A stretch of DNA of 64,000 bases from a virus. The notes under the pieces are model-generated. The model was not told the origin of the DNA, ran no database searches, and saw nothing but the letters and a program-made list of their open reading frames with translations. Positions 2,525 to 25,637 of the stretch are shown in pieces (position 1 is the first letter of the stretch; each line of letters starts with the position of its first letter). The DNA is taken from positions 1 to 64,000 of IMG/VR virus record IMGVR_UViG_3300033153_007754; one strand, written 5' to 3'. Position numbers and translations under genes: made by a program.

Positions 2525-2767
2525 ATGAGTAAAATCACATTGATAGATGGTAAAAAATTCACTGGTGTTCTTGAAATAATTAGTGAATATAAAACCAGAA
2601 CTGAATGCAAAAATGGGTTAATACACGGTAAATATATAGAATGGTGGTATAATGGAAATGTGCGTTTAGAAAGACATTACAAAGATGGGGAAAAGCATGG
2701 TGATGAAACAAAATGGGATGAAGATGGTAACAAAATAAGTGAAACCTTTTATGTTGATGGTTGGTAA
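2525..2767 (+). CDS. YwqK-like MORN_2 repeat protein, shortest copy
   Basis: The ATG at 2525 follows GGAGG at the right distance and gives 80 residues. The head (DGKKFTGVLEI) is followed by two complete 24-residue units of the type KNGLIHGKYIEWWYNG and one partial unit. The ending FYVDGW shows it stops inside a third unit. It is the leftmost member of the array and directly follows the NADAR-like gene. YwqK-type proteins are annotated as antitoxins; its activity here is unknown. Confidence 0.85.
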   Translation: MSKITLIDGKKFTGVLEIISEYKTRTECKNGLIHGKYIEWWYNGNVRLERHYKDGEKHGDETKWDEDGNKISETFYVDGW

Positions 2768-2796
2768 CATAATAAAATAGCACACAAATCAATTCC

Positions 2797-2821
2797 TTAA
2801 ATAATCAATAAAACCTATAAT
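2797..2821 (+). promoter_or_regulatory. Candidate middle-type promoter for rnh
   Basis: TTAAATAAT (2797-2805) lies exactly 10 bases before TATAAT (2816-2821), and no TTGACA is present. The same box and spacing occur at 4716 and 19817. The position near -30 resembles the activator box of T4 middle promoters, but the sequence is not the T4 MotA box. Confidence 0.5.
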
Positions 2822-2823
2822 AA

Positions 2824-2844
2824 CCTATTAAATTTTTTAATAGG
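2824..2844 (+). promoter_or_regulatory. Leader hairpin touching the ribosome binding site
   Basis: CCTATTAAA (2824-2832) and TTTAATAGG (2836-2844) are perfect complements around a 3-base loop. The final AGG is part of the Shine-Dalgarno sequence of the nuclease gene, so folding could limit translation. It starts right after the predicted transcription start. Confidence 0.55.
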
Positions 2845-2852
2845 AAAATACT

Positions 2853-3698: not shown

Positions 3699-3704
3699 AA
3701 GGTT
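3627..3704 (+). repeat. 78-bp direct repeat, left copy (3' end of rnh)
   Basis: This segment covers the last codons of rnh and the first bases of a would-be following gene (ATGAAAGGTT). It matches 4317-4394 with 6 mismatches in 78 positions. The two copies flank the minus-strand YwqK gene and its promoter. Confidence 0.9.
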
Positions 3705-4183
3705 TAAATAGTGGAAGAATATATTTGTTTCCCATTTTTATAATTTAATTCAGATTTTTTATTACCATTTTTATGCCACCAAATTTCTTTACCGTGTCTT
3801 TTACCATCTTTATAATTTATTTCAAATTCTTTATTTCCATTTTCATACCACTTAATACCAAGTGTGATTTTCCATTCGTTATATGAATGTATAGATTTTT
3901 TATTCCCATTTCTATACCATTCTGTATATTTACCATGTAATGCACCATTTTTATAATTCTTTTCTTCAAATTTAATACCATTTTCATACCATTCAATTTG
4001 TTTCCCATGTTGTTTTCCATTTTTATAATTTTCTTCAATTTTTTTATTTCCATTATCATAAAAGATAATAGATTTCCCATGTTTTTCACCATCTAAATAT
4101 TCACAATTATTATAAATTCCTGTGAATATTTCTTCTTTTAGCTCATGAACTAAGCCTGTTTCATTATTTCTTGCTACTACCAT
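3704..4183 (-). CDS. YwqK-like MORN_2 repeat protein, inserted on the opposite strand
   Basis: This is the only member of the family on the minus strand. The 159 residues start with a head (GLVHELKEEIFTG) and carry five 24-residue units such as NYKNGALHGKYTEWYRNG; the fourth has lost its HG signature (SYNEWKITLGIKWYENG), and a partial unit ends the protein. It has its own early-type promoter at 4226-4253 and a good ribosome binding site (AGGAGA). It sits between two 78-bp direct repeats, so it looks like a recently inserted cassette. Confidence 0.88.
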   Translation of the reverse strand: MVVARNNETGLVHELKEEIFTGIYNNCEYLDGEKHGKSIIFYDNGNKKIEENYKNGKQHGKQIEWYENGIKFEEKNYKNGALHGKYTEWYRNGNKKSIHSYNEWKITLGIKWYENGNKEFEINYKDGKRHGKEIWWHKNGNKKSELNYKNGKQIYSSTI

Positions 4184-4203
4184 ATCATTCTCCTATGAAT
4201 TAG

Positions 4204-4253
4204 GGCTTAATTGCCATCTATTTAGAGTATACTGATTTACTTGGATTTCTCAA
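4204..4253 (-). promoter_or_regulatory. Early-type promoter with leader hairpin for the minus-strand YwqK gene
   Basis: Read on the minus strand, TTGAGA (4248-4253) and TATACT (4226-4231) are 16 bases apart. The leader ATGGCAATTAAGCCC follows, in which GGC and GCC (4204-4215) can pair around AATTAA. The layout is the same as at 6045, 28784 and 29566. Confidence 0.75.
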
Positions 4254-4316
4254 GTGTTTTCTTGTTTTTTTGATATTTACCATGTTTTTTACAATTTTCA
4301 TATAAAACACATAGAG

Positions 4317-4740: not shown

Positions 4741-4771
4741 CCATTAAACATATTATCACTAAGAGGTTATT

Positions 4772-6041: not shown

Positions 6042-6044
6042 TAC

Positions 6045-6096
6045 TTGACAAATCCAAATAAATCAGTATACTCTAAACAGATGGTAATTAAGCCAT
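6045..6096 (+). promoter_or_regulatory. Early-type promoter with 5' hairpin
   Basis: TTGACA (6045-6050) and TATACT (6067-6072) are 16 bases apart. The predicted RNA starts near 6079 and begins with ATGG-TAATTAAG-CCAT (6081-6096), a 4-bp stem with an 8-base loop shared among these promoters. A strong ribosome binding site (TAGGAG) follows. Confidence 0.8.
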
Positions 6097-6115
6097 GATT
6101 TCGTAGGAGAATCAT

Positions 6116-6406: not shown

Positions 6407-7267
6407 ATGAAAACGGTTGTTGAAGATAATGGATTAACTTATGAAATCAATAAAGATGGTTTTAGTGGTTATGGTAAAAACATTAATGGAATGGAAGGTA
6501 ATTATATTAATGGAAAAAAAGAAGGAACACATAAAAGTTTTTACGAAGATGGTAAAAAACAAAGTGAAGAAAATTATAAAGATGGTAAAAGAGATGGCGA
6601 ATCTAAAACATGGTATGAAACAGGTGAGTTATATACAGAATGTTTTTCTGAAAATGGTGAAGTCAAAGAAATTTACTGGTACAGGAATGGCAATAAAGAA
6701 TGTGAATTTTATGGTAAAAATGGTTTTTTAGATGGTGAATATATTGATTGGTATATGAATGGTGATATATCTTCAGAAACACATTATATACAAGGAAAAA
6801 AACATGGACATAAAATATCATGGTTTAGAAATGGTAAAATTCGTAAAATAGAAGGCTTAAAAAATGGCGAAAAACATGGTGAATGTAAAGTGTGGTATAG
6901 GGATGGAACAAAGAAACTTAGTTGTACATATAAAAATGGAAAAAAACATGGTAAGTTTATTGAATGGAATGTGAATGGCATAAAAGAAAATGATATAGAT
7001 TTTATAGATGGTAAATGGCATGGGAAATATATTGTTTATTATTATAGTGGTGAAATAAAAGAAGAACTTCATTACAAAGATGGTTTAAAACATGGTAAAG
7101 AAAGTTGGTATTATAAAAACGGACAAATTGAATTGACATGTGAATATAAAGATAACATGAAAAGCGGTGAAGTTATATGTTATGACGAAGATGGTGAAAT
7201 TGAGACAAGAGCGGTATATATTATAGGTGTTCAAGAAAGTAGAAAAGTTTTAATTGAAAGACAATAA
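6407..7267 (+). CDS. YwqK-like MORN_2 repeat protein
   Basis: The 286 residues follow a near-consensus AGGAGG. The head (NGLTYEINKDGFSG) is followed by about ten 24-residue units, for example TYKNGKKHGKFIEWNVNG. The third unit has lost the usual HG signature (FSENGEVKEIYW) and the last is degenerate. No signal peptide or membrane helix is present, so it should act in the cytoplasm. It is the first gene of a unit with the RlmN/Cfr-like enzyme, 9 bases apart. Confidence 0.88.
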   Translation: MKTVVEDNGLTYEINKDGFSGYGKNINGMEGNYINGKKEGTHKSFYEDGKKQSEENYKDGKRDGESKTWYETGELYTECFSENGEVKEIYWYRNGNKECEFYGKNGFLDGEYIDWYMNGDISSETHYIQGKKHGHKISWFRNGKIRKIEGLKNGEKHGECKVWYRDGTKKLSCTYKNGKKHGKFIEWNVNGIKENDIDFIDGKWHGKYIVYYYSGEIKEELHYKDGLKHGKESWYYKNGQIELTCEYKDNMKSGEVICYDEDGEIETRAVYIIGVQESRKVLIERQ

Positions 7268-8276: not shown

Positions 8277-9071
8277 ATGATTGAAGAAAACATTTTTTTC
8301 GATGAATTATATCATGAAGATGGTGGTATAAGGATTATTAGGAATTTCAAAAATGGTGAAAGAAATTTAATTCAAAATTTTAAAAATAATAAATTACATG
8401 GACGGCAAGAGAAATATTGTAAAAATGGGCTATTAAAAACAGAGAAAATGTTCAAATATGGGAAATTACATGGTAAACAAATTGAATGGGATGACAATAA
8501 TGTAATGATTTCAAATATTGAATATAAAAACAATAAAAAAGATGGGGTGTCAATATTACGTTATGAAAATGATAAGTTAAAATCCATTCAGGAATTTAAA
8601 AATAATAAACCACATGGAAAATCTTTCTTTTGGTATGTGAGTGGACAAAAGAAATCAGATGTCAGATATGAAAATGGGAAAAGACATGGTGAATATAAAT
8701 CTTGGCATGAAAACGGAAGAATAGATGTTAAGACAACATATAAACAGGGGCTATTACATGGTGAATACAAAAAGCATGATAGATATAAGGAACTTGATAT
8801 TGAATGTTTTTATAATAATGGATTAATAGAGGGTCTCTATACCAAATGGGTTACTGGTGTTCACAGATTTAAGGTAGAAATTTACGATTTTATACCCGAT
8901 GATGGTATGTCATTATTTGAAAAATTGAAAACCACCTGTAATTACAAAAATGGAAAAAAACATGGTCTTCAAATTGCAAAATATACACATGAGCGTAAGG
9001 TTATAATAAATAAACATTTAAAAAAAGTTAATGTGGGAAGTGCTGAAATTGCTATGGAAATGGATATTTAA
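8277..9071 (+). CDS. YwqK-like MORN_2 repeat protein, divergent
   Basis: The 264 residues have an atypical head (IFFDELYHEDGG, related to those at 15876 and 17279) instead of the usual YE-K..FTG. About seven repeat units follow, several with lysine-asparagine-rich substitutions (EYKNNKKDG). The last 80 residues lose the repeat pattern apart from one NYKNGKKHG. It follows the radical SAM gene after 25 bases with a good GTGGGG site. It is among the most diverged copies. Confidence 0.82.
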   Translation: MIEENIFFDELYHEDGGIRIIRNFKNGERNLIQNFKNNKLHGRQEKYCKNGLLKTEKMFKYGKLHGKQIEWDDNNVMISNIEYKNNKKDGVSILRYENDKLKSIQEFKNNKPHGKSFFWYVSGQKKSDVRYENGKRHGEYKSWHENGRIDVKTTYKQGLLHGEYKKHDRYKELDIECFYNNGLIEGLYTKWVTGVHRFKVEIYDFIPDDGMSLFEKLKTTCNYKNGKKHGLQIAKYTHERKVIINKHLKKVNVGSAEIAMEMDI

Positions 9072-9109: not shown

Positions 9110-9138
9110 TTGACAAAATATGAAATAAAATATATAAT
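9110..9138 (+). promoter_or_regulatory. Sigma70-like promoter
   Basis: TTGACA (9110-9115) and TATAAT (9133-9138) are 17 bases apart. The leader contains GGTTG-TAATTATG-CAATT, a 5-pair stem (two G-U pairs) whose loop resembles the TAATTAAG loop of the early-type leaders. Confidence 0.75.
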
Positions 9139-9186: not shown

Positions 9187-9963
9187 ATGTGTAAAAACAA
9201 TTTAATACCAGAAGGTGGTTATTTAGCCGAAAAAAAAAATGGTAAAGAGGTTTATTACAATAAGAATGGGAGAAAAGAATGGGAAATAAACTATAAAGAT
9301 GGAAAAAAAGATGGTAAAGAGTTTTTTTGGCATAAAAATGGTGATAAAGCATCAGAAGAAACTTATAAAGATGGGTTACTACATGGGGTTGAAATTGAAT
9401 GGAACGAATATGGTAGTAAACTATATGAATTAAATAACGAGAATGGGGAAAGCCATGGTATACAAACTTGGTGGTATCATAATGGCAATAAACAAACTGA
9501 AATATTTTATAAGCATGGTAAAAGACATGGTAAACACTCTGAATGGCATGAAAATGGTAAGAAAAGTTTTGAATCAATTTACGAAAACGCCAAGCCGATT
9601 GGGAAATCTTTTCTTTGGTATGAGAATGGAAATAAAGAAAATGAAATAAACTATGAAGCTGGTAAAAAAAATGGTAAAGAAATAAGATGGTATTATGATG
9701 GCAAGATAAAATGTGAATTGCAGTATGAAAATGGTAATAGGTATGGTGTTCATACTTATTGGTATAAGAATGGAAATAAACAATCTGAAACAAATTATGT
9801 GAATGATGTAGAAGATGGTATTCAAATTGCTTGGTATGAGAATGGAAATAAAAGATTTGAACGGAATTTTAAGAAGTGTATACTTCATGGTAAATATACA
9901 GAATGGCATGAAAATGGTGAAATAAAAAATATTAGTGAATATATTAAGGGTGAAAAAATATGA
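9187..9963 (+). CDS. YwqK-like MORN_2 repeat protein
   Basis: The 258 residues consist almost entirely of ten 24-residue units from residue 10 onward (for example FYKHGKRHGKHSEWHENG), with no separate FTG head. One unit (YENAKPIGKSFLW) has lost the conserved glycine and histidine. It has its own promoter and a strong AAAGGAG. Its stop overlaps the start of the next gene (ATGA), so a membrane protein is translated right behind it. Confidence 0.86.
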   Translation: MCKNNLIPEGGYLAEKKNGKEVYYNKNGRKEWEINYKDGKKDGKEFFWHKNGDKASEETYKDGLLHGVEIEWNEYGSKLYELNNENGESHGIQTWWYHNGNKQTEIFYKHGKRHGKHSEWHENGKKSFESIYENAKPIGKSFLWYENGNKENEINYEAGKKNGKEIRWYYDGKIKCELQYENGNRYGVHTYWYKNGNKQSETNYVNDVEDGIQIAWYENGNKRFERNFKKCILHGKYTEWHENGEIKNISEYIKGEKI

Positions 9964-10415: not shown

Positions 10416-11285
10416 ATGGATGAAATGAAAGTGTGTTTTGTTGGTGGGGTTTATCGTCAAGTTATGATTAAACCCTATACAGGTGAAATTAAAAATAATA
10501 AAATTAAAGGTTTTATTAAGGATGGAAAGCTACATGGGAAAATTACCAATTATAATGATGAAGGTGAGATATACAATGTAGTTGATTACAAAGATGGGAA
10601 AGAACATGGTAAAGAAACATGGTGGAATGAAAATGGAAAGAAATGGATAGAAGTAAGTTATGAGAATGGTAAAAAAAATGGGTTATATACAATATGGTAT
10701 AGTAATGGTAAAAAAAGAAAGGAAACAAATTATCTAAATGATGTTATGGATGGATTAGAAACAATCTGGTATGAAAATGGCAATATCCAAAGTGAATATA
10801 ATTATAAAAAATGTCACATTCTGCATGGAAAACAAATTAAATATCATGAAAATGGAAATAAAGAAAGGGAATTAACTTATATAGATAATAAAATAAATGG
10901 TAAAGAAACTATCTGGTATGAAAATGGTATTAAATCAATGGAAATAAATGTTAAGGATGGTGTACAAGATGGTGTTTCTATGTCTTGGTATCAGGGTGGT
11001 GAGAAAAAAAGCTATAAGATGTATAAAAACGGTCAATTACATGGTACATTTACTAGGTTTTATCCTAATGGTAATAAGCAATTAGAATCAGAATATGAAG
11101 ATGGTGATATGCAGGGTTTCGGTTTTACTTGGCATCCTAATGGTAAAATCGAATCAAATACAAATCATAAAGATGGTAAAAAAAATGGTAAAGAAATTTG
11201 GTGGCATGATAGTGGAAAAAAAGCTTGTGAAGAAAATTATAAAGATGGTAAAAGAGATGGCGATATAAAGTGGTGGGTAAAATAA
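10416..11285 (+). CDS. YwqK-like MORN_2 repeat protein
   Basis: The 289 residues carry a short head and about ten units, with one extra residue in the fifth (NYKKCHILHGKQIKYHENG) that shifts the usual 24-residue spacing. It follows AGGGG and overlaps the next copy by one base (TAATG). Its unit containing CHILHGK resembles the CILHGK unit at the end of the 9187 gene, suggesting exchange between neighbours. Confidence 0.87.
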   Translation: MDEMKVCFVGGVYRQVMIKPYTGEIKNNKIKGFIKDGKLHGKITNYNDEGEIYNVVDYKDGKEHGKETWWNENGKKWIEVSYENGKKNGLYTIWYSNGKKRKETNYLNDVMDGLETIWYENGNIQSEYNYKKCHILHGKQIKYHENGNKERELTYIDNKINGKETIWYENGIKSMEINVKDGVQDGVSMSWYQGGEKKSYKMYKNGQLHGTFTRFYPNGNKQLESEYEDGDMQGFGFTWHPNGKIESNTNHKDGKKNGKEIWWHDSGKKACEENYKDGKRDGDIKWWVK

Positions 11286-12190
11286 TGATTAAATTAAATG
11301 GTGTTCCAGTAAATGGTGAATTAATAGAAACATATAAAAAAAATGGTAATGTAAAAAAACGAAGTAATTATAAAGATGGTGTGTTAGATGGGGTTGAAAT
11401 TGAATACCGTAAAGATGGTTCTATGAAATATAATACTAATTATAAAGATGGTGTTTTAAATGGCAAACACACAGAATGGCATAAAAATGGACAAAAGAAA
11501 ATTGAATTAAATTATACAAATGGTAAAGAAAATGGTAAACAAACTAAATGGTATGAAAATGGTAATAAACAATCTGAAAGTGATTTTGATAATGGTGTAT
11601 TAAATGGTAAACATATTTTATGGTGGAAAAATGGAAGTAAAAGCCATGATATAGATTATGTAGATGGGAAAGAACATGGTAAGAGCATTTCTTATTACCC
11701 AAGTGGTGGCGAAAGTACTGTAATAAACTATGAAAATGGTCAAATACATGGTATTATGATTGATGTTTCACCTGATGGTACACAACATATAACAACTAAT
11801 TATAAAAATGGTCAGAGACACGGGAAAAAGATTGTTTGGTTTTCGTATTCGCTTAAAAAGAAAATGAGTGAAGAGGTTTACGAAAATGGTAAATTAAACG
11901 GTAAAGAAAAGAGGTGGCATGAAAATGGTGTAAAACATTGGGAAAGAAATTTTGTTGATGGCAAATCAAATGGTTTAGAGAGTATTTGGGATGAAAACGG
12001 AAATAAAAAAAGTGAAGTAGATTATGTAGATGGAAATAAACATGGTAAACAAACAAAATGGTATGAAAATGGTGATAAAAAAAATGAACGATATTATGAA
12101 AAAGGTTTAGAAAACGGAGAATATACAATTTATAATCAAGATGGTTCTATTTGTGAGAAAGGAACATATGAATATGGCTATATAAAATAG
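11285..12190 (+). CDS. YwqK-like MORN_2 repeat protein
   Basis: The start is placed at ATG 11285, which overlaps the upstream stop as TAATG and gives 301 residues. About twelve units follow a very short head. Units 6-8 deviate (SYYPSGGESTVI, IDVSPDGTQHITT), losing the aromatic pair. The upstream coupling and the absence of any promoter place it in the operon starting at 9187. Confidence 0.87.
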   Translation: MIKLNGVPVNGELIETYKKNGNVKKRSNYKDGVLDGVEIEYRKDGSMKYNTNYKDGVLNGKHTEWHKNGQKKIELNYTNGKENGKQTKWYENGNKQSESDFDNGVLNGKHILWWKNGSKSHDIDYVDGKEHGKSISYYPSGGESTVINYENGQIHGIMIDVSPDGTQHITTNYKNGQRHGKKIVWFSYSLKKKMSEEVYENGKLNGKEKRWHENGVKHWERNFVDGKSNGLESIWDENGNKKSEVDYVDGNKHGKQTKWYENGDKKNERYYEKGLENGEYTIYNQDGSICEKGTYEYGYIK

Positions 12191-13723: not shown

Positions 13724-13752
13724 TTGACAAAATAATAAACAAATGATATAGT
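13724..13752 (+). promoter_or_regulatory. Sigma70-like promoter
   Basis: TTGACA (13724-13729) and TATAGT (13747-13752) are 17 bases apart. The leader has AACAA-TGATT-TTGTT, again a small hairpin near the predicted 5' end, then TAGGAG. Confidence 0.7.
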
Positions 13753-15883: not shown

Positions 15884-16625
15884 AAAGATAGACAACACAA
15901 ATACACGTGAAATTATAAATTATTATGATGATTTTAACAAGAAATCGGAATGCACACTTGTTAATTATAAACGTGAAGGCAAATATACAAAATGGAAATA
16001 CAACAATGTTTTGTATTATGAAGAATATTATCAATATGGTAAATTAAATGGTAAACAAACCTATTGGTATAAAAATGGTAATAAAAGAAGTGTTTATAAT
16101 TTTGTGAATGGTAAAAAACGTGGTGAGTTTTGTGAATGGTGGGATAATGGTAACAAAAAAAGAATTGGTATTTCATGTGCTCTTTTAGATTTAAAAAGTT
16201 GGTATAGAAGTGGTAAAAGGAAATCTGAAGTTTTCTATAAAAATAAAAACAATAAGAGTGATTTTGAGTTAATAACATGGTATGAAAATGGTAACACTGA
16301 ATTTATAGAGTTTTATAAAAGGGGTTTAGCTGATGGTATTCAAAAAATGTTTTATAAAAATGGGAATAAAAAACACGAAGTAAACACAAAAAATGGTATA
16401 GTATATGGTATCACTTTAAGATGGCATAAAAATGGTGAGTTGGAATACAAAGGTTTTTTAAATGACGACAAACAAGAGGGTGTTATATTAGGGTGGTATG
16501 ATAATGGTAACAAACAATACGAATTAAATTATAAAGATGATAAAAAACATGGTGCATGTGTTTGGTTCTACAAAGATGGAAGTAAACAATATGAATATGA
16601 ATATTTAGATGATATCATAGTATAA
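15876..16625 (+). CDS. YwqK-like MORN_2 repeat protein, FFDE/YYDD-head subtype
   Basis: The ATG at 15876 lies within the end of the upstream gene and gives 249 residues. The head is of the second subtype (IINYYDDFNKKSECTLVNYKREGKYTKW), matching the head of the 17279 gene (TTFFDEEHENKKTDYTLLNWKLDGKYTTW). About eight units follow, one interrupted (ISCALLDLKSWYRSG). Confidence 0.85.
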   Translation: MDRKIDNTNTREIINYYDDFNKKSECTLVNYKREGKYTKWKYNNVLYYEEYYQYGKLNGKQTYWYKNGNKRSVYNFVNGKKRGEFCEWWDNGNKKRIGISCALLDLKSWYRSGKRKSEVFYKNKNNKSDFELITWYENGNTEFIEFYKRGLADGIQKMFYKNGNKKHEVNTKNGIVYGITLRWHKNGELEYKGFLNDDKQEGVILGWYDNGNKQYELNYKDDKKHGACVWFYKDGSKQYEYEYLDDIIV

Positions 16626-16629
16626 TTCC

Positions 16630-16684
16630 TTGACAAATTAATTTTTAAATATACAATGTATTATATAGGTGGTATTATACCACC
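16630..16684 (+). promoter_or_regulatory. Sigma70-like promoter with strong 5' hairpin
   Basis: TTGACA (16630-16635) and TACAAT (16652-16657) are 16 bases apart. GGTGGTA and TACCACC (16668-16684) form a 7-bp stem with a TTA loop at the predicted RNA 5' end, and AGGAGG follows. Confidence 0.72.
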
Positions 16685-16701: not shown

Positions 16702-17286
16702 ATGTGTAGAATAGCAGTTGATGATGGAAAATTTTATGAATTAAAAGAAAAACCATTTACAGGTGAAGTTAATGAGAAATATACAACTGGTTACATTAAA
16801 AATGGTTTAAAACATGGCTTATGGATTGAATATTATTTTTCAATGGAAACCCAAAAAGAAAGTGAAGAAAATTATAAAGATGGTCTTAAACATGGGAAAG
16901 AAATTGTTTGGTTTAGTAATGGGGTAAAGAAACTGGAAAGGGATTATTTAAATGATGTTTTGGTAGGTAAACAAGCTGAATGGTTTAAAAATGGTAATAA
17001 CAAATCTGAAGAAAATTATAAAGATGGGAAACAAGATGGTTTACAAATTGATTGGTACAAAAATGGAAATAAATATATAGAAACAAATTACAAAGATGGG
17101 AAAGAACATGGTAAGAAAACATGGTGGTATGAGAATGGTAATAAAAAACTGGAAATAAATTATAAAGATGGTGAAGAAGATGGTTTACAAATTTGGTGGG
17201 ATGAAGATGGTAATAAAAAATTAGAAAAATACTACAAAGATGGTAAAGAAATTATATCATTTAATTTGGGGCTTAATTATGCGTAA
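16702..17286 (+). CDS. YwqK-like MORN_2 repeat protein (first gene of the second duplicated pair)
   Basis: Start chosen at ATG 16702 after AGGAGG, giving 194 residues. Head DGKFYELKEKPFTG, then about six very regular units (for example NYKDGKEHGKKTWWYENGNK), among the closest to consensus in the window. It ends 8 bases inside the next gene, as in the 15422/15876 pair. Confidence 0.87.
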   Translation: MCRIAVDDGKFYELKEKPFTGEVNEKYTTGYIKNGLKHGLWIEYYFSMETQKESEENYKDGLKHGKEIVWFSNGVKKLERDYLNDVLVGKQAEWFKNGNNKSEENYKDGKQDGLQIDWYKNGNKYIETNYKDGKEHGKKTWWYENGNKKLEINYKDGEEDGLQIWWDEDGNKKLEKYYKDGKEIISFNLGLNYA

Positions 17287-17761
17287 AGATAATCTTAACA
17301 AAGTTCACATCACTACTTTTTTTGATGAAGAACATGAGAATAAAAAAACTGATTACACACTTCTTAACTGGAAGTTGGATGGCAAATATACCACATGGTT
17401 AAATAACAATCTTTTGTTTTCAATACAGCAGTACAAGGATGGAAAATTAGAAGGGAAATATATTGAATATCACCTAAATGGTGCAATAAAAAGAATCGCT
17501 TATTACAAAGACGATTTATTAAATGGTCAATTAAAATCTTTTTATGAAAATGGTAATAAAAAAGTTGAGTGTACTCTTGTAAATGATGGTATAAATGGTA
17601 AGTATATAAGATGGCATGAAAATGGGAATAAAGAAACAGAATGTAATTACAAAGATGGTTTAAAAGATGGTGAATATATTAGATACCATGAAGATGGTAG
17701 TATCGAATTTAAAGAATTTTGGGAAAATGATGAAATATTAAAAGATAATAATAAAAAGTAA
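17279..17761 (+). CDS. YwqK-like MORN_2 repeat protein, FFDE/YYDD-head subtype
   Basis: The ATG at 17279 overlaps the upstream stop and gives 160 residues. It shares its distinct head with the 15876 gene but has only about five units, so the two second-position genes differ by loss or gain of several 72-bp units. Its weak start is probably served by translational coupling (GGGG at -11). Confidence 0.84.
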   Translation: MRKDNLNKVHITTFFDEEHENKKTDYTLLNWKLDGKYTTWLNNNLLFSIQQYKDGKLEGKYIEYHLNGAIKRIAYYKDDLLNGQLKSFYENGNKKVECTLVNDGINGKYIRWHENGNKETECNYKDGLKDGEYIRYHEDGSIEFKEFWENDEILKDNNKK

Positions 17762-17769
17762 AATAACCC

Positions 17770-17822
17770 TTGATAAATCCGAAAAAAATCCGTATATTAT
17801 AAGCAGATGGTAATTAAGCCAT
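17770..17822 (+). promoter_or_regulatory. Early-type promoter with 5' hairpin
   Basis: TTGATA (17770-17775) and TATATT (17793-17798) are 17 bases apart. The leader ATGG-TAATTAAG-CCAT (17807-17822) is identical to that at 6081-6096. GGGAGGA follows. Confidence 0.78.
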
Positions 17823-17840
17823 AATCCAAGGGAGGATAAT

Positions 17841-18404
17841 ATGAGTAATGAAAACAGTAAATCAAGCGAATTTAGCGACTTTGTTGTAAAAGGTGGTGTT
17901 ATATACGAAAGACAACAAAAAGGTTATACAGGGTCAATAATAAGGCGTTGGGATGATGAAGATGCTGCTGATGATGGTGAAATTAGAAGTATATATAACT
18001 TCAAGAATGGGTTGAAAGATGGTAAATGCATAAAATACCATTGTTATGAAAAAGGTGTGGTTTCAGAAGAAACTAATTATAAAGATGGTGAATATCATGG
18101 TAAATATACTGAATGGGAATGGGACGGAAGCTTAATAAGAGAATATAATTTTAAGAATGGAAAATCAGATGGTATTATGGTTAAATATTATAAAGATGGG
18201 GATAAAGGAAAAAAACATATTCTTACACATAAAAACGATTTACCTCATGGTTTAAGTCAAATGTTTTATGAAGATGGCACTAAAGCTTGTGAAACAACGT
18301 ATGTAAATGGAAAAAAGCATGGTAAAGAAATTTGGTGGGATGAAGATGGCAATAAAGAATCAGAAACACTATACGAAAATGGTGTTAAAATTAAAGAATC
18401 TTAA
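17841..18404 (+). CDS. YwqK-like MORN_2 repeat protein
   Basis: The 187 residues have a head of the VVKGGVIYERQQKGYTG type, shared with the next gene (VIKNGVLYEIKNSGYTG), then an acidic insertion (DDEDAADDGE) and about six units. Single gene between two early-type promoters. Confidence 0.85.
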   Translation: MSNENSKSSEFSDFVVKGGVIYERQQKGYTGSIIRRWDDEDAADDGEIRSIYNFKNGLKDGKCIKYHCYEKGVVSEETNYKDGEYHGKYTEWEWDGSLIREYNFKNGKSDGIMVKYYKDGDKGKKHILTHKNDLPHGLSQMFYEDGTKACETTYVNGKKHGKEIWWDEDGNKESETLYENGVKIKES

Positions 18405-18422: not shown

Positions 18423-18475
18423 TTAACAATCCCAAAAAAATCTGTATAATATCAATAAGTGATAATCAAGTCACT
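18423..18475 (+). promoter_or_regulatory. Promoter with variant 5' hairpin
   Basis: TTAACA (18423-18428) and TATAAT (18445-18450) are 16 bases apart. The leader forms AGTGA-TAATCAAG-TCACT (18458-18475). Both stem arms differ from the ATGG/CCAT arms of the other leaders, yet pairing and the loop sequence are kept. Confidence 0.75.
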
Positions 18476-18491: not shown

Positions 18492-19280
18492 ATGAATAAA
18501 ACTGATTTCGACAATTGTGTGATAAAAAACGGTGTATTATACGAAATAAAAAACAGTGGTTACACTGGGGTTGTCATTAGACAATATGATGATAAAATAA
18601 TTAGTGAAGGGGTTTATAAAAATGGTTTAATACATGGTAAAAACATTCATTATGATGAAAATGGTAAAAAAGAATATGAAATTAATTATAAGAATGGAAA
18701 ACAACATGGTGAATACACTAAATGGTTTGATAATGGTGGGAAACAAACGCAAATGTTTTATGCTGATGGTAAATTAGATGGCATACTTATTGAGTGGGAT
18801 GAAAATGGAAATAAAAGACGTGAAATAAATTATAATAATAAACACACACATTGGTATGAAAATGGTAATAAAAAATGTGAGTGTAACTTAAAAAACAATA
18901 ATAAATATGGTAAAGAAATTCGTTGGTATGAAGATGGAAACATCAAAAGTGAAAATAACCATGAAAATGGTTTATTGCATGGTGTTCAAAAAGAATGGTA
19001 TAAAGATGGTAAGAAAAAAAGTAAGGCGAATTATAGAAATGATAGATTAAATGGTAAAGAAATTATTTGGTTTAGTAATGGTAACAAAAAAAGTGAAACT
19101 AATTATAGAAATGATATGCCAATTGGGAAGGTTAATTTATATCATGAAAATGGGAATAGGAAAAAAGAAATGAATTACAAAAAGGGTGTATTAAATGGTG
19201 ATTATATGTCTTGGTATGAAGATGGGAAAACAAAAAGTCTTTTTTATTATGAAAATGGCAAGAAAAATTATAGTTTATAG
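18492..19280 (+). CDS. YwqK-like MORN_2 repeat protein with an internal unit deletion
   Basis: The ATG at 18492 after AGGGGA gives 262 residues with a GYTG-type head and about ten units. One unit is cut short (NYNNKHTHWYENG), lacking the DGK..HGK part, which looks like an in-frame deletion inside one 72-bp unit. It is followed 9 bases later by the nonsense copy with the same head type. Confidence 0.86.
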   Translation: MNKTDFDNCVIKNGVLYEIKNSGYTGVVIRQYDDKIISEGVYKNGLIHGKNIHYDENGKKEYEINYKNGKQHGEYTKWFDNGGKQTQMFYADGKLDGILIEWDENGNKRREINYNNKHTHWYENGNKKCECNLKNNNKYGKEIRWYEDGNIKSENNHENGLLHGVQKEWYKDGKKKSKANYRNDRLNGKEIIWFSNGNKKSETNYRNDMPIGKVNLYHENGNRKKEMNYKKGVLNGDYMSWYEDGKTKSLFYYENGKKNYSL

Positions 19281-19289: not shown

Positions 19290-19736
19290 ATGAATAAAAT
19301 TGATATTAATGATTGTATGGTAATTGATGGTGTATTATATCAAATTGTTGATAATGAATATACTGGTGTTGTTACTGAATAATGGGGTAATGGTGCAAAA
19401 TGTAGTGAGACAAACTATAACAATGGTTTAAAAGATGGTAAAGAAATTTATTGGTATGAAAATGGTAATAAAAAAACTGAATTAAATTATAAAAATGGTA
19501 AACGAAATGGTGAACACACAGAATGGCATGGAAATGGTAATGTATTCATAAAATGTTTTTTTAAAAATGATAAAATAGAGGGTGTTGTTAACGTATATTA
19601 TAATAATGGAAATAAAAAAAATGAATCTAATTATAAAGATGGTGTAAAACATGGAATATATACCGAATGGGATAACAAAGGTAATGAAGTAACTAAAGAA
19701 AAATATGAAAATGGTTTGTTGGTGGTTATACGATAA
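19290..19736 (+). pseudogene. YwqK-like gene interrupted by one in-frame TAA
   Basis: A good ribosome binding site (TAGGAG) and ATG at 19290 open a frame with the family head (CMVIDGVLYQIVDNEYTGVV). It meets TAA at 19380-19382 after 30 codons. The same frame then continues without any stop through about five normal repeat units to TAA at 19734-19736. The neighbouring copy has a glutamine at the equivalent place (IRQYDD versus TE*WGN), so a CAA-to-TAA change explains it. No frameshift is needed. Confidence 0.85.
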
Positions 19737-19862: not shown

Positions 19863-20687
19863 TTGAGTGTCAAAAACAATCTTAAAACAGATAATATTTT
19901 ATATAAAAAAGATGTATTTAAATTAGGTGGTATTTTATATACATTAAAAAAACGTGAAATATTTACAGGAAGTATTATTGAAAAATTCCCTTCTGGTGGG
20001 ATGAAATTTAATATAAAATATGAAAATGGTAAAAGACACGGTAAAGAAATTTGGTGGCATGAAAATGGCAACAGAAGTTATGAATGTGATTATGTAAATG
20101 GTAAAAGGGATGGTTATATTAATACATATCACAAAAGTGGTGCAATTCATGAAAAAATCCCATATTTAGATGATGATAAAAATGGAACACATGAAACTTG
20201 GTATGAAAATGGGAATAAATATATAGAACGAAATTATAAATCTGGCATACAAGAGGGTAAAGAAATTTGGTGGCATGAAAACGGTGAAATCAAGATGGTA
20301 TCATGTTATGTGAATGATAAACATATCGGTGAAAAAATAGTCTTTTATATGGATGGTAATAAAAAAGACTTATACTATACTGATGGTAATGGGGATTTCA
20401 GACACACAGAATGGTATAGAAATGGTGAGAAAGAATGTGAAACAAATTATGTAAATGATGAAAAACATGGTCTTCAAATTCAGTGGTATAATAATGGCTG
20501 CAAATACATAGAAACAAATTATAAAAATGGTTTAAAACATGGTAAAGAAACATGGTGGTATAGAAATGGTAAAATAGATGTAGAAGAAAACTATGTAAAT
20601 GGAAAAAAACATGGTATACAAACTTGGTGGTATAGAAATGGTAAGAAAGAATGTGAATATGAATATAAAAATGGTGAGGTGTTATAA
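19863..20687 (+). CDS. YwqK-like MORN_2 repeat protein
   Basis: Start at TTG 19863, 8 bases after GGGGG; no ATG is available nearby. The 274 residues comprise a head (LGGILYTLKKREIFTGSII) and about nine units. One unit carries a deviation (FYMDGNKKDLYYTDGNGDFRHTEW). The stop overlaps the next start (TAATG). Confidence 0.84.
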   Translation: MSVKNNLKTDNILYKKDVFKLGGILYTLKKREIFTGSIIEKFPSGGMKFNIKYENGKRHGKEIWWHENGNRSYECDYVNGKRDGYINTYHKSGAIHEKIPYLDDDKNGTHETWYENGNKYIERNYKSGIQEGKEIWWHENGEIKMVSCYVNDKHIGEKIVFYMDGNKKDLYYTDGNGDFRHTEWYRNGEKECETNYVNDEKHGLQIQWYNNGCKYIETNYKNGLKHGKETWWYRNGKIDVEENYVNGKKHGIQTWWYRNGKKECEYEYKNGEVL

Positions 20688-21454
20688 TGAAAATAGTTGC
20701 AGAATATAACGGTAAATTTTATGAACTAAAAGAAATTACATATACAGGTCAAGCAATTAATGTTGTGGGTGAAGATGGTAGTTATAAAAATGGTTTGAGA
20801 AATGGAAAATTTAAAAGTTTTTATGAGAATGGTAAAGTGAAATATGAGGTTATATTTAAAGATGGCGAATTTGATGGTAAATATACGAAATGGTATGATA
20901 ATGGAAATAAAGAATCTGAAACTAATTTTGATAATGGTGTAGTAAATGGTAAACATATTGTATGGTGGGAAAATGGAAATATAAAAATTGATTCATCATA
21001 TGTTAATGGTAAATTGGATGGTGTAGAACTTTGGTTTTATAAAAATGGTGGTAGCCACTGCAAATTTAATTATAAGGGTTGTTTGTCGCATGGGCTTCAA
21101 ACAAGATGGCATGAGAATGGAAACAAGGAATTAGAACGAAATTATAATGAGGGTAAACGACACGGTAAAGAAATAAAATGGTATTATTACGGGAATATAA
21201 AATGTGTTGCAAATTATAAGGATGATAAATTTCATGGTAACGATAGTGAATGGTATGAAAATGGTAAGAAAAGATATGAATGTAATTATAAAGATGGGGA
21301 TAAACACGGTAAAGAATTAGAATTTTTTGAGAATGGTAATATACGATATGAACGTAATCATAAAGATGGTTATTTCCATGGTGATAGCATTGAATATTAT
21401 AAAGATGGAAGAAAAAAAAATATGTGTGTTTATGTTGATGGATATATTAAATAA
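20687..21454 (+). CDS. YwqK-like MORN_2 repeat protein
   Basis: The 255 residues have the head NGKFYELKEITYTGQ and about nine units with good WYENG signatures. It is coupled to the upstream copy by a one-base TAATG overlap. The pair TNFDNGVVNGKHIVWWENG is almost the same as a unit of the 11285 gene (SDFDNGVLNGKHILWWKNG), suggesting exchange of units between distant copies. Confidence 0.86.
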   Translation: MKIVAEYNGKFYELKEITYTGQAINVVGEDGSYKNGLRNGKFKSFYENGKVKYEVIFKDGEFDGKYTKWYDNGNKESETNFDNGVVNGKHIVWWENGNIKIDSSYVNGKLDGVELWFYKNGGSHCKFNYKGCLSHGLQTRWHENGNKELERNYNEGKRHGKEIKWYYYGNIKCVANYKDDKFHGNDSEWYENGKKRYECNYKDGDKHGKELEFFENGNIRYERNHKDGYFHGDSIEYYKDGRKKNMCVYVDGYIK

Positions 21455-21477: not shown

Positions 21478-21936
21478 ATGTTTAAAATAAATGGTGAAAA
21501 CTTCACAGGTGTGGTTGAAAAAAGTGGTGAATATAAGATTGAATATAAAGATGGTTTAAAAGATGGTACAGAAATAATATTGTATAGTAATGGAAATATG
21601 AAGAATTTAATAAATTATAAAAATGGTTTATTGGATGGTAAATTTTGTGAATGGGTTTGGTTTGGAGAAAAAGATGTTGTTAAATTTTTTAAGGATGGTA
21701 AAAGGCATGGATTAGAAACTTCTTGGTATTACAATGGCAATAAGGAATCAGAAGTAAATTATAAAGATGGTAAAAAACATGGTAAGGCTACTTGGTGGTT
21801 CTATAATGGTAAAATAGAATATGAAGGTAATTATATCGATGGTGAAAAAGAAGGTAGGTTTACTAGTTGGCTTGAAGATGGTGAAATTGAATATTTTATT
21901 AATTTTGTTAATGGTGTTAAACAAGATAATGTATAG
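21478..21936 (+). CDS. YwqK-like MORN_2 repeat protein, short
   Basis: The 152 residues have a minimal head (INGENFTGVVEKSG), similar in form to the 2525 gene, and five units. Start after AAGGTG. It is followed by the next copy after 8 bases. Confidence 0.85.
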   Translation: MFKINGENFTGVVEKSGEYKIEYKDGLKDGTEIILYSNGNMKNLINYKNGLLDGKFCEWVWFGEKDVVKFFKDGKRHGLETSWYYNGNKESEVNYKDGKKHGKATWWFYNGKIEYEGNYIDGEKEGRFTSWLEDGEIEYFINFVNGVKQDNV

Positions 21937-21944
21937 GGGATATA

Positions 21945-22895
21945 ATGACTGAAAAGATTGTAAATAATGGTAAAAATGTGGTTATTAAAGATGGCTTATT
22001 ACATATATTAACGACAAAACCATATACAGGTGTAATTGTGTATAATTCTGTTAGTGGTGAAAAACGTGTTGAGACAAGTTACAAAGATGGGAAAGAACAT
22101 GGTAAAGAAATTTGGTATTATGACACTGGTGAAATAATATCCGAAAGGAATTACAAGTATAATAAAAAACATGGTAAATTTATCGATAGATATAGAAATG
22201 GAAATAAAAAATATGAACTCTTTTTTGTGGATGGGTTACAAGAAGGTAAGGAATTTTGGTGGTATGAAGATGGAACATGTATTACATATCGTGTTGGTGG
22301 TAAAAAAGAAGTTGAAATTAATTATAAGAATGGAAAAAAACATGGTAAAGAAATATGGTATTATAGAAAGATGAATAAAGAAATTGAGGTTGATTATAAA
22401 GATGGCTTGAAACATGGGAAATATATTGTTTGTGATGAATTTGGAAGTGTATTGAGATTAATAGACTATAAAAATGGTAAAAAAGATGGTAAAGAATTAG
22501 GATGGTATTGGAATGGTAATAAAGAATTTGATATAGACTATAAAAATGGTGAAAATCATGGTCAATATAAACAATGGTACCGTGATGGCAATAAACACAT
22601 TCTTTCAAATTACTTGGATGGGGAAAGACATGGCGAATGTTTTTGTTGGTATGAAAATGGAATAATATCTAGCAAAGAAAACTATAAATATGGTAAATTG
22701 GATGGTCTTTATTTAAGTTACTATCGAAATGGTAACCCTTGGCTTGAAATTAATTATAAAGATAATTTACAACATGGTAAAACAATGGTGTATTATGAAA
22801 ATGGTAATAAAGAATATGAAGATTATTATGAATTTGATGTAGAAAAAAAACGCAGGAAAAAATGGTTTTCTTTTGGTTTAAGAAAATTTTGGTAA
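21945..22895 (+). CDS. YwqK-like MORN_2 repeat protein, long
   Basis: The 316 residues carry the head KDGLLHILTTKPYTGVIVY and about eleven units. Two units are irregular (EDGTCITYRVGGKKEVEI and IWYYRKMNKEIEV). The C-terminus is basic (KKRRKKWFSFGLRKFW), unlike other copies, and might bind nucleic acid or a membrane. Confidence 0.86.
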   Translation: MTEKIVNNGKNVVIKDGLLHILTTKPYTGVIVYNSVSGEKRVETSYKDGKEHGKEIWYYDTGEIISERNYKYNKKHGKFIDRYRNGNKKYELFFVDGLQEGKEFWWYEDGTCITYRVGGKKEVEINYKNGKKHGKEIWYYRKMNKEIEVDYKDGLKHGKYIVCDEFGSVLRLIDYKNGKKDGKELGWYWNGNKEFDIDYKNGENHGQYKQWYRDGNKHILSNYLDGERHGECFCWYENGIISSKENYKYGKLDGLYLSYYRNGNPWLEINYKDNLQHGKTMVYYENGNKEYEDYYEFDVEKKRRKKWFSFGLRKFW

Positions 22896-22940: not shown

Positions 22941-23618
22941 ATGAAAGAAGGAAATCCAAAATATTTAACAGAAATGAGTGACGGCTTATTACATGAAATA
23001 AACCAAAAGCCATACACAGGTGTTTTAAGAACTAGATTCGCTGATGGCAACATTAAATCTGAAGAATACTATAAAGATGGTTTGAAGGATGGAAAATATT
23101 CACAGTGGAATGATGGCGGGGTTTTATTATCAGAGAAAAATTACAGAAATGGGTTAAAACATGGTCGACAACATCGAATGTATGGGGAAGGTCTTGTCGA
23201 ATATATATATAATTATAAAGATGGCAAACCAATTAATGAGTTCACTGATTATTATGAAGATGGTAATATTGAACGAAAAATATTATTTAATGATGATGGA
23301 AAAAAACATGGGAAATGTTTTAATAATTTTGAGAATAATAAAAGACACATCGAAGAAGAATATGAAAATGGTAAATCAATCGGGCAATATAAACAATGGT
23401 ATGAAAATGGGAATGTGAATCTAATTGTAAACTATGAAAATGGTGTACAGGAAGGTGAAACAAGAAGGTATCATGAAAATGGTGAACTTCATATTAAATT
23501 GTTTTATAAAAATGGTCTTGAAGATGGTCTACAAAGTAATTATGATACTGATGGGAAATTAATCAAAACTTATCTGTATAGTCAAGGTGAATTAATTGAT
23601 GCTTCAGATGGTGAATAA
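22941..23618 (+). CDS. YwqK-like MORN_2 repeat protein
   Basis: The 225 residues have the head SDGLLHEINQKPYTGVLR, related to that of the preceding gene, and about eight units with frequent loss of the WY pair. Start after AAGGAA. It is followed by the first copy of a repeated 37-bp spacer. Confidence 0.85.
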   Translation: MKEGNPKYLTEMSDGLLHEINQKPYTGVLRTRFADGNIKSEEYYKDGLKDGKYSQWNDGGVLLSEKNYRNGLKHGRQHRMYGEGLVEYIYNYKDGKPINEFTDYYEDGNIERKILFNDDGKKHGKCFNNFENNKRHIEEEYENGKSIGQYKQWYENGNVNLIVNYENGVQEGETRRYHENGELHIKLFYKNGLEDGLQSNYDTDGKLIKTYLYSQGELIDASDGE

Positions 23619-23649
23619 CATATATAATAATTTTATTTAAGGGGTAAAA
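23613..23649 (+). repeat. 37-bp direct repeat spacer, first copy
   Basis: The end of the 22941 gene, the spacer and the ribosome binding site (TTTAAGGGG) are identical over 37 bases to 24267-24303. Confidence 0.9.
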
Positions 23650-23651
23650 AA

Positions 23652-24272
23652 ATGGAAATAGTAGTAGATGATAAGAATCTTGTGGTTGAAAATGGTGTGG
23701 TATATGAGTTGACACCACTTGTGTTTACTGGGAAGGGTATTTATACGGCTCAAAATGGACGAACACGTGAAACAATTTATGTGGATGGAAAGAGGCATGG
23801 CAAAGAAATTACTAGGTATGAAGATGGTGTTATACTATCTGAATGTAATTACGAAAATGGTGAATTGAATGGTAAAAAATATATATGGGATGAAGATGGA
23901 ACTAAAAGACTTGAATATAATTATAAAGATGGAAAAGAACATGGGTGTAGTTTAGAGTGGAATAAAAAAGGTGTTTTGAATATGGAAGAAAACTATGTAA
24001 ATGGAAAAAAACATGGTAAACATATTTTATGTTGGGAAAATGGTGATAAAATGTGTGAAGAAAATTATATTGATGGAAAAAAGGATGGAATTCAGAGCCA
24101 TTGGTACGAAAATGATAGTAAACATTTTTTGGAAACATATCAAAATGGTGAACTCAATGGAAAATATATTATTTGGGGTGAAGATGGCAATAAAGAAAGT
24201 GAAATGATTTACAAAGATGGTGTTAAGATGGTTTATTACACGGAAGTCAAAGATGGTACTAAGGGCGAATAA
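23652..24272 (+). CDS. YwqK-like MORN_2 repeat protein
   Basis: The 206 residues have the head ENGVVYELTPLVFTGKG and seven to eight units. Identical 37-bp spacers lie on both sides, so this gene plus one spacer looks like a duplicated module. RBS AAGGGG. Confidence 0.86.
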   Translation: MEIVVDDKNLVVENGVVYELTPLVFTGKGIYTAQNGRTRETIYVDGKRHGKEITRYEDGVILSECNYENGELNGKKYIWDEDGTKRLEYNYKDGKEHGCSLEWNKKGVLNMEENYVNGKKHGKHILCWENGDKMCEENYIDGKKDGIQSHWYENDSKHFLETYQNGELNGKYIIWGEDGNKESEMIYKDGVKMVYYTEVKDGTKGE

Positions 24273-24303
24273 CATATATAATAATTTTATTTAAGGGGTA
24301 AAA
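24267..24303 (+). repeat. 37-bp direct repeat spacer, second copy
   Basis: Perfect copy of 23613-23649, from GAATAACATAT to the start of the next gene. Perfect conservation of a non-coding spacer between paralogues implies recent duplication or gene conversion. Confidence 0.9.
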
Positions 24304-25637
24304 TGAAAAGAGTTGGTTTTAAGGATGTTGTTACAAAAAAAGATGGTCTGATATATGAAGTAAGACAAAATCCATTCACTGGTATAATTGAAAGTGATGA
24401 TGAGAGTGGTGTTTTTTTTAAAGATGTTATTAAAGATGGTTCACCACATGGTGTTTGTAAAGAATGGTATGAAGATGGAAATAAAAAAATGACCACAAGG
24501 TTTAAAAATGGGTTACTGGAAGGTGAAAGAATTAAATACCATCAGGGTGGTGGAGTATCTGAACGTGCTACATACAAAAATGATATTTTAGATGGTAAAA
24601 AACTAGTATTTAATGAACATGGTGTAAAACAAATGGATATTGATTACAAAGATGGTTTTTTCCATGGTAAAGAAATTTTATATTATTCAGATGGTTCAAA
24701 ACATACTGAAATAGACTACAAGAAAGGTTTAGTAGATGGTGAATTCAAATTCTGGTATAAAAATGGTTTATTAGGGTTTTGTAGGAAATTTGAAAATAAC
24801 ATTGAAGTTAATGGACAGGTTGATTATTTTTGGAGTGATGGAACTAAAAAAAAGACATATTATATTGTAAATGGTGTTAAAGATGGTGATGAAGTAATTT
24901 GGAATGAAGAAGGTAAAAAGGTATTTGAAACTACATGGAAGGAAGGAAAACAAGATGGTGAATCTACTACATGGCATTATATTAAAACAATAGCTAGAAT
25001 ATATGAAAAAGGTCTTTTAATATCAGAAAAGAATTATGAAAATGATATATTACATGGTGTTGTTCGTACATGGTGGAACACTGGCAACAAAAGAAGTTTC
25101 GTTGAATATATTGTTGGAAAAAAATATGGTAAAAGACTTCTTTGGTATAAAGATGGAAGTAAAGAAACAGAAGAAAATTATATGAATGATGTGTTAAATG
25201 GTAAATCTATTCACTATTATTATAGCATTGAAGATGATATTGCTGATGGCACTAAAATGTCTGAATATGAATTTAAGGATGGGAAATTAGATGGTAGACA
25301 ATTAAAGTATCATGAAAATGGTAAGAAGTCTTCACAAATAAATTATAATGATGGTAAAGAACATGGTGTGTTAACCACTTGGTATGAAGATGGCAATAAG
25401 AGAAGTGAAGTGAGTTATAAAGATGGTAAAAGACACGGTAAACACATTGAATGGCATGAAAATGGTAATAAAAAAACGGAATTAAATTATAAAAATGGCC
25501 TGTTACATGGAATGGGTTTTCATTGGGATGAAGAGGGTTCACTAATTTATGAAATAGATTATGACAATGAAACAGACGGTTGTTTAATATTCCCACCATT
25601 TCCGGTGGTTACTAAAGAATCCGAAGGGAATGAATAA
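24303..25637 (+). CDS. YwqK-like MORN_2 repeat protein, longest copy
   Basis: The 444 residues have the head KDGLIYEVRQNPFTGIIE and about fifteen units, including several divergent ones in the middle (YIKTIARIYEKG, SIEDDIADGTKMSEY). The last 20 residues leave the repeat pattern. It closes the array; the next gene is an unrelated SLOG-like protein. The number of units is roughly seven times that of the 2525 gene. Confidence 0.88.
   Translation: MKRVGFKDVVTKKDGLIYEVRQNPFTGIIESDDESGVFFKDVIKDGSPHGVCKEWYEDGNKKMTTRFKNGLLEGERIKYHQGGGVSERATYKNDILDGKKLVFNEHGVKQMDIDYKDGFFHGKEILYYSDGSKHTEIDYKKGLVDGEFKFWYKNGLLGFCRKFENNIEVNGQVDYFWSDGTKKKTYYIVNGVKDGDEVIWNEEGKKVFETTWKEGKQDGESTTWHYIKTIARIYEKGLLISEKNYENDILHGVVRTWWNTGNKRSFVEYIVGKKYGKRLLWYKDGSKETEENYMNDVLNGKSIHYYYSIEDDIADGTKMSEYEFKDGKLDGRQLKYHENGKKSSQINYNDGKEHGVLTTWYEDGNKRSEVSYKDGKRHGKHIEWHENGNKKTELNYKNGLLHGMGFHWDEEGSLIYEIDYDNETDGCLIFPPFPVVTKESEGNE

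What the first reader, a model, noticed from the sequence alone, without database searches (positions are those of the whole stretch)
2525..25637. A 23-member array of YwqK/MORN_2 repeat proteins in a phage genome
Seen: 22 intact genes and one nonsense copy, from 80 to 444 residues, all built from a 24-residue (72-bp) unit of the form NYKDGKxHGKxxxWYENGNKxxE, fill about 16 kb of 23 kb. None has a signal peptide. Known: YwqK-type MORN_2 proteins are annotated as antitoxins paired with deaminase-type toxins, and arrays of paralogous immunity proteins occur in toxin systems. Inference: the phage may keep a variable bank of immunity or anti-defence proteins, with repeats allowing unit number and surface to change by recombination. 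No toxin gene accompanies them, which fits immunity rather than a toxin-antitoxin pair.
Basis: partly seen in the sequence, partly recalled or inferred. Interest (0 to 1): 0.88.

Follow-up and report, generated by a model that had tools for sequence, protein, structure and literature searches.

The report
Phage bank of 23 MORN_2-repeat genes
A T4-like virus of an unknown bacterium devotes a tenth of its genome to 23 neighbouring genes, all built from one 24-residue repeat, that look like early-made, target-binding proteins against the host cell; the family's 'antitoxin' name is thin evidence, but the array is real and much denser than in the bacteria sampled.

Summary
The window is part of a 153.5-kb T4-like myovirus record. 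Between 2525 and 25637 lie 22 intact MORN_2 genes (80-444 aa) and one copy with an in-frame TAA; together they fill 16.1 of 23.1 kb. Two more intact copies and one broken copy lie elsewhere in the genome. No signal peptide or toxin was found.

New evidence: (1) the genes look early. Operon heads carry near-consensus host-type promoters, and two genes sit behind a promoter-leader cassette repeated 14 times in the genome; only 1 of 20 shows the ATAAATA late-type motif, against 12 of 25 mostly virion genes. A virion role is therefore unlikely. (2) AlphaFold2 gives a confident MORN ribbon (pLDDT 91). (3) Four alternating residues per unit are most variable, with dN/dS about 1.6 there and about 0.6 elsewhere; this was not reproduced in a second phage. 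(4) Exact segments are shared between genes beyond chance. (5) A second phage contig has its own array of 12 MORN_2 genes.

The immunity reading is possible but not shown. YwqK itself is a tested immunity protein, yet none of eight bacterial 'YwqK'-type loci inspected had an annotated toxin gene beside it. Copy-number turnover could not be tested; the only relative found is the same phage.

The parts
2525..2767 (+). MORN_2 gene 1 (80 aa; alternative TTG start 2486)
   Evidence: Pfam PF07661 4e-8
3704..4183 (-). MORN_2 gene 2 (159 aa), the only one on the minus strand; behind a copy of the early cassette
4175..4260 (-). Early promoter and 5'-leader cassette (TTGAGA..TATACT..AGATGGCAATTAAGCCCT..AGGAG) of gene 2
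6407..7267 (+). MORN_2 gene 3 (286 aa)
8277..9071 (+). MORN_2 gene 4 (264 aa)
9110..9138 (+). Perfect sigma-70-type promoter (TTGACA-17-TATAAT) 48 nt before gene 5
9187..9963 (+). MORN_2 gene 5 (258 aa); A-run near its start is one base longer in the second assembly (frameshift)
10416..11285 (+). MORN_2 gene 6 (289 aa)
11285..12190 (+). MORN_2 gene 7 (301 aa; GTG start 11270 gives 306)
12201..13328 (+). MORN_2 gene 8 (375 aa)
13724..13752 (+). Sigma-70-type promoter (11 of 12) before gene 9
13792..14157 (+). MORN_2 gene 9 (121 aa)
15422..15883 (+). MORN_2 gene 10 (153 aa)
15876..16625 (+). MORN_2 gene 11 (249 aa from ATG 15876; longer ORF from 15846)
16630..16657 (+). Sigma-70-type promoter (11 of 12) before gene 12, followed by a strong 5'-UTR hairpin
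16702..17286 (+). MORN_2 gene 12 (194 aa from ATG 16702; GTG start 16669 gives 205)
17279..17761 (+). MORN_2 gene 13 (160 aa)
17764..17850 (+). Early promoter and leader cassette of gene 14 (exact core GATGGTAATTAAGCCAT)
17841..18404 (+). MORN_2 gene 14 (187 aa)
18423..18450 (+). Sigma-70-type promoter (11 of 12) before gene 15
18492..19280 (+). MORN_2 gene 15 (262 aa from ATG 18492; GTG start 18459 gives 273)
19290..19736 (+). Broken MORN_2 copy; TAA at 19380, frame otherwise open to TAA 19734; same in the second assembly
19863..20687 (+). MORN_2 gene 16 (274 aa, TTG start)
20687..21454 (+). MORN_2 gene 17 (255 aa); structure predicted: continuous MORN beta ribbon, pLDDT 91.3, pTM 0.79
21478..21936 (+). 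MORN_2 gene 18 (152 aa)
21945..22895 (+). MORN_2 gene 19 (316 aa)
22941..23618 (+). MORN_2 gene 20 (225 aa)
23652..24272 (+). MORN_2 gene 21 (206 aa); shares an exact 37-bp upstream stretch with gene 22
24303..25637 (+). MORN_2 gene 22 (444 aa)

Best explanation
The locus is a bank of early-expressed, cytoplasmic MORN_2 repeat proteins made by a T4-like phage. Each protein is a long beta ribbon that presents variable residues at fixed alternating positions of every unit and works by binding a partner protein stoichiometrically. The most likely partners are host (or competitor-delivered) toxic and defence proteins, so the bank works like a bacterial 'polyimmunity locus' carried by a phage. Shown here: the array, the MORN fold by prediction, early-type promoters, absence of the late-type motif from all but one of the genes tested, no signal peptides, constraint on most of the repeat, and exchange of segments between genes. 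Inferred: that the proteins bind protein targets, that the targets are toxins or defence proteins, and that variety of copies serves variety of targets.
For: Array and family. Early class: perfect or near-perfect sigma-70 promoters with start codons 39-48 nt downstream at 9110, 13724, 16630 and 18423, a weaker promoter-like sequence before gene 3, and a repeated early cassette before genes 2 and 14; ATAAATA late-type motif upstream of 12 of 25 mostly virion genes and 1 of 20 MORN genes. Fold: MORN ribbon, nearest solved structures are MORN1 proteins (E 1.6e-10), nearest viral models are giant-virus MORN proteins and a pithovirus 'antitoxin' (TM 0.86). MORN1 structures are reported to be protein-protein interaction modules (PMC7725318) and a junctophilin MORN domain is solved with a bound peptide (7rxq). 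Variable positions 3, 5, 14 and 16 have dN/dS 1.64 (bootstrap 1.24-2.19), other strand positions 0.54. Between-gene segment sharing beyond null. One family member, YwqK: fitness loss of mutants lacking the toxin-antitoxin operons was rescued by ectopic antitoxin expression, with a ywqK strain in the set (PMC8321402). A YwqK-like gene is in the most induced host operon of C. jejuni under T4-like phage attack (PMC6024767). Tandem, same-orientation, toxin-free organisation matches the description of polyimmunity loci (PMC3482391).
Against: No target is known and the host is unknown. MORN does not appear in the held text of the immunity-family survey. Eight bacterial loci with related MORN_2 genes, most of them labelled 'YwqK family antitoxin', have no annotated toxin gene beside them. 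The array proteins reach no NCBIfam cut-off and match nothing in PADLOC. The dN/dS excess was measured at positions picked for being variable and was not reproduced in the second phage array (0.74, 0.43-1.23); the same positions vary in unrelated phage MORN_2 proteins. No copy-number turnover was seen.
Confidence: 0.4

Rival explanations
1. Host-takeover scaffold: the MORN proteins are early adaptors that bind each other, host proteins or phospholipids to reorganise the infected cell (replication compartment, membrane contacts), not immunity proteins.
For: MORN1 proteins are reported to dimerise and oligomerise and to bind single phospholipids (PMC7725318). In L051 and L052 the MORN genes sit among replication genes (DnaB-like helicase, DNA polymerase, clamp loader). 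Giant viruses carry large MORN families with no known toxin link: 55 sequences in Orpheovirus (PMC5786535) and among the most abundant families in marseilleviruses (PMC8208085).
Against: A scaffold would hardly need 22 diverged versions with predicted pI from 5.1 to 9.3 and the most variation at fixed alternating positions.
Confidence: 0.33
2. Non-adaptive expansion: a recombinogenic repeat gene has multiplied in a genome with room to spare, with little function for most copies.
For: At least two broken copies (19290-19736 and about 87.4-87.9 kb); shared exact segments show that repeats recombine.
Against: 22 of 23 copies in the array are intact; other strand positions and loops evolve under constraint (dN/dS about 0.5-0.7); operon heads keep good promoters and ribosome-binding sites; a second phage contig has its own array.
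Confidence: 0.14
3. Surface or envelope proteins for superinfection exclusion or adhesion, like exported bacterial MORN_2 proteins.
For: Relatives with a similar 'Y...P[FY]TG' cap carry signal peptides (L060, L065); the nearest NCBIfam model is the LIC20035 adhesin, far below cut-off.
Against: None of the 22 has a signal peptide or hydrophobic helix.
Confidence: 0.07
4. Virion components (head decoration, tail or fibre parts).
For: Repeat proteins are common in tail fibres (general knowledge).
Against: Opposite strand and separate block from most virion genes; early promoters; ATAAATA late-type motif on only 1 of 20.
Confidence: 0.04

Closest known systems
Polyimmunity loci (Zhang et al. 2012, PMC3482391)
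   Same: Tandem same-strand paralogues of one family, short gaps, no toxin genes between them, usually cytoplasmic binding proteins.
   Different: On a phage, not a bacterial chromosome; MORN was not found among the families in the held text; target toxins unknown; strain variation not testable.
YwqK, immunity partner of the B. subtilis LXG toxin YwqJ (PMC8321402)
   Same: MORN_2-type repeat protein by family name, acts in trans, intracellular.
   Different: YwqK sits next to its toxin; the phage genes have none, and are many. Similarity is at the level of the unit; no orthology shown.
MORN families of giant viruses (marseilleviruses, Orpheovirus, Pithovirus LCPAC302)
   Same: Large paralogous MORN families; predicted fold superposes with TM 0.86 on a pithovirus protein.
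   Different: Viruses of eukaryotes; function unknown there as well.
12-gene MORN_2 array in phage contig IMGVR_UViG_3300002026_001699 (L050)
   Same: Tandem, mostly overlapping MORN_2 genes in an AT-rich phage contig with phage ribonucleotide reductase and helicase genes.
   Different: Short (101-174 aa) proteins with a different N-terminal cap; independent expansion.
MORN_2 gene cluster near the integrase of a Helicobacter equorum prophage (BK070118)
   Same: Three adjacent MORN_2 genes in a phage accessory position.
   Different: Temperate phage, 3 genes, no shared cap.

Membership tests
MORN_2 repeat proteins (PF07661) | Match above the Pfam gathering score | tested here: met
   33-95 bits against a cut-off of 29.6 for the seven proteins scanned
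MORN_2 repeat proteins (PF07661) | MORN beta-ribbon fold | tested here: met
   pLDDT 91.3; PDB MORN1 at E 1.6e-10
Polyimmunity locus | Tandem paralogues, same orientation, small gaps | tested here: met
   21 of 22 intact genes on +, gaps of -8 to 119 bp within runs, some runs broken by other genes
Polyimmunity locus | No toxin gene among the immunity genes | tested here: met
   Pfam, PADLOC and PHROGs scans of interspersed ORFs gave no toxin domain
Polyimmunity locus | Members are immunity proteins of polymorphic toxins | not testable with these tools
   Only YwqK is tested in the literature found (PMC8321402)
Polyimmunity locus | Gene content varies between close strains | tested here: inconclusive
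   Only a 99.97-100% identical copy of the same phage was found
YwqJK-type toxin-antitoxin pair | Adjacent deaminase-type toxin | tested here: not met
   No such domain found next to any copy in the array
YwqK antitoxin family | NCBIfam family model above cut-off | tested here: not met
   Only the LIC20035 adhesin model at 28-77 bits for the array proteins, cut-off 250
Virion structural protein | Late promoter and late gene block | tested here: not met
   1 of 20 with ATAAATA against 12 of 25; sigma-70 promoters instead

The most novel reading that the evidence does not exclude
A phage-borne polyimmunity bank: a combinatorial set of early MORN_2 ribbons whose variable surfaces are reshuffled between copies so that the phage can neutralise many different host or competitor toxins, a counter-defence kind not described before and recurring in other phages.
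Probability: 0.25. Interest if true: 0.9.

Novelty: new variant of a known kind. Interest (0 to 1): 0.64.

Why it matters
About a tenth of a T4-like genome is spent on one repeat family. If the proteins are immunity or counter-defence proteins, this would be a new way for a phage to cover many host toxins at once, and it would give a testable function to MORN families that are just as large and just as unexplained in giant viruses. Such arrays are probably under-counted: MORN repeats were 37 times more frequent in long-read viromes than in assemblies (PMC9238414).

Tried and rejected
Copy-number comparison with related phages: radical-SAM, RNase H, terminase, capsid and DNA polymerase queries returned the same phage (IMG assemblies 3300033141 and 3300033148) or, for terminase, relatives at 22-25% identity. 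Gene conversion as source of the SNPs between the two assemblies: variant alleles do not match paralogues convincingly; six of the eight small differences fall in MORN genes, which may equally be assembly error in repeats. DNA mimicry by acidic proteins: net charges run from -11 to +14, so rejected. T4 consensus TATAAATA over the whole window: not enriched, though the shorter ATAAATA is found before virion genes. Host from gene content: the radical-SAM gene is 54% identical to one in Bacteroides phage Versailles, but strong AGGAG ribosome-binding sites do not suit Bacteroidota (general knowledge); left open.
Full report
WHAT IS THERE. The window is the first 64 kb of a 153.5-kb virus record. 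It is a T4-like myovirus: its large terminase is about 34% identical to those of Rhizobium and Sinorhizobium T4-like phages, its DNA polymerase matches gp43, and it carries a late sigma factor and an RNase H-like exonuclease. Twenty-two intact MORN_2 genes and one copy with a TAA at 19380 lie between 2525 and 25637 and cover 16.1 kb. The seven MORN proteins scanned against Pfam reach E 4e-8 to 3e-28. The unit is 24 residues; a strict pattern finds 132 units and a sensitive profile 192. Two intact copies and one frame-broken copy lie elsewhere in the genome. Many of the proteins share a short N-terminal cap, 'G-x-x-Y-E-L-K...PFTG', and relatives with a similar cap elsewhere have a signal peptide in front of it; the phage copies lack the signal peptide. 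For scale, 61 genomes of one bacterial phylum had 0 to 14 significant units each, the phage has 80 (E-value limits depend on genome size, so the comparison is approximate).

HOW IT HAS EVOLVED. Units do not group by gene: the nearest unit is in the same gene for 9 of 131, with 6.3 expected. Genes share 25 exact 24-mers within units where column-shuffled controls have 1.6 on average and at most 13, and the stretches before genes 21 and 22 are identical over 37 bp. So segments have moved between genes. No recent unit gain or loss was seen. The only relative, a 74-kb contig of another assembly, is the same phage at 99.97-100% with the same array; over the 74 kb it differs by 7 SNPs, one 1-base indel in an A10 run of gene 5, and one 45-bp gap near 33.6 kb. 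That is too close to test turnover.

WHEN IT IS EXPRESSED. Scans for host-type promoters put a 12-of-12 match before gene 5 and 11-of-12 matches before genes 9, 12 and 15, each 39-48 nt from the start codon; a weaker promoter-like sequence lies before gene 3. Genes 2 and 14 lie behind a cassette found 14 times in the genome, in which the -35, spacer, -10 and a 5'-leader stem-loop around an AATTAA loop are all conserved. Among 25 late-block (mostly virion) genes 12 have ATAAATA within 100 bp upstream, a T4 late-type motif; 1 of 20 MORN genes has it. Together these place the array in the early class. This is inference from sequence; no expression data exist.

WHAT THE PROTEINS LOOK LIKE. Gene 17 is predicted as one continuous beta ribbon (pLDDT 91.3, pTM 0.79). 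The best solved matches are MORN1 proteins of Toxoplasma, Plasmodium and Trypanosoma; the best viral models are giant-virus MORN proteins. The authors of those MORN1 structures conclude that MORN repeats are protein-protein interaction modules (PMC7725318). The four most variable positions of the unit are 3, 5, 14 and 16, alternating along the two strands. dN/dS between nearest units is 1.64 there (1.24-2.19) and 0.54-0.61 elsewhere. Caution: these positions were chosen because they vary, pairs of units are diverged, the second phage array gives 0.74 (0.43-1.23), and the same positions vary in unrelated phage MORN_2 proteins.

OTHER PHAGES. A search of IMG/VR found MORN_2 genes in 17 other contigs. 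One 72-kb contig with phage ribonucleotide reductase and helicase genes has 12 tandem, mostly overlapping MORN_2 genes with a different cap: an independent array. Others carry two long MORN_2 genes among replication genes. In annotated phages only a Helicobacter equorum prophage, with three MORN_2 genes near the integrase, and a 1.5-kb stray contig matched. I found no paper that describes such an array in a phage.

WHAT IT MOST LIKELY DOES. Early, cytoplasmic, target-binding proteins with many variants and constrained cores fit a bank of host-directed inhibitors. Among these, immunity or counter-defence is my first choice (0.4) because one family member, YwqK, acts as an immunity protein in trans (PMC8321402), because the layout matches polyimmunity loci (PMC3482391), and because a YwqK-like gene is in the most phage-induced operon of C. 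jejuni (PMC6024767). Against it: the 'antitoxin' name spread by annotation is not supported by context; in eight bacterial loci no annotated toxin gene lies beside the MORN_2 gene, and the array proteins reach no NCBIfam or PADLOC model. A host-takeover scaffold is nearly as likely (0.33). Virion parts (0.04) and exported proteins (0.07) are disfavoured by promoters and N-termini.

VERDICT. Observation confirmed and extended; interpretation partly supported. It is a new variant of known kinds (polyimmunity-like layout, giant-virus-like MORN expansion) in a T4-like phage.

Noticed in passing
window 6038-6125(+), 17764-17850(+), 28778-28862(+), 29559-29648(+), 59382-59467(-), 4175-4260(-); further copies in L020, L021, L022, L023, L024: A genome-wide early promoter and leader cassette, 14 near-identical copies: CTTGACAAATCC..GTATAyT..AGATGGyAATTAAGCCAT..AGGAG..ATG. 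The spacer is conserved too; the AATTAA loop is invariant and the stem shows a compensatory change (GGTGG..CCAC in L022:4899-4984). A second hairpin seems to hold the ribosome-binding site, hinting at translational control.
   Followed up: partly
window 1231-1824(+) and 14228-14875(+): Two stand-alone GmrSD_N/DUF262 domain proteins, similar to N-terminal parts of defence proteins NsnA and PD-T4-2_A; truncated forms could act as decoys.
   Followed up: no
window 14872-15411(+) and 33801-34568(-): DUF285 (BspA-like) repeat proteins; the first lies inside the MORN array and matches PF03382, the second looks alike by eye.
   Followed up: no
window 7277-8251(+): Radical-SAM protein, weakly RlmN/Cfr-like, 54% identical to one in Bacteroides phage Versailles although the rest of the phage is T4-like.
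   Followed up: partly
window 9220-9235: A10 run near the start of MORN gene 5, A11 in the second assembly: slippage (on/off switching) or sequencing error.
   Followed up: partly
window 33570-33614: 45-bp stretch missing in the second assembly of the same phage.
   Followed up: no
L050:9552-14644: Independent array of 12 tandem MORN_2 genes, each starting with a cap like 'HEQIxxLFTSPxxTM..GLWFSG', in a 27% GC phage contig.
   Followed up: partly
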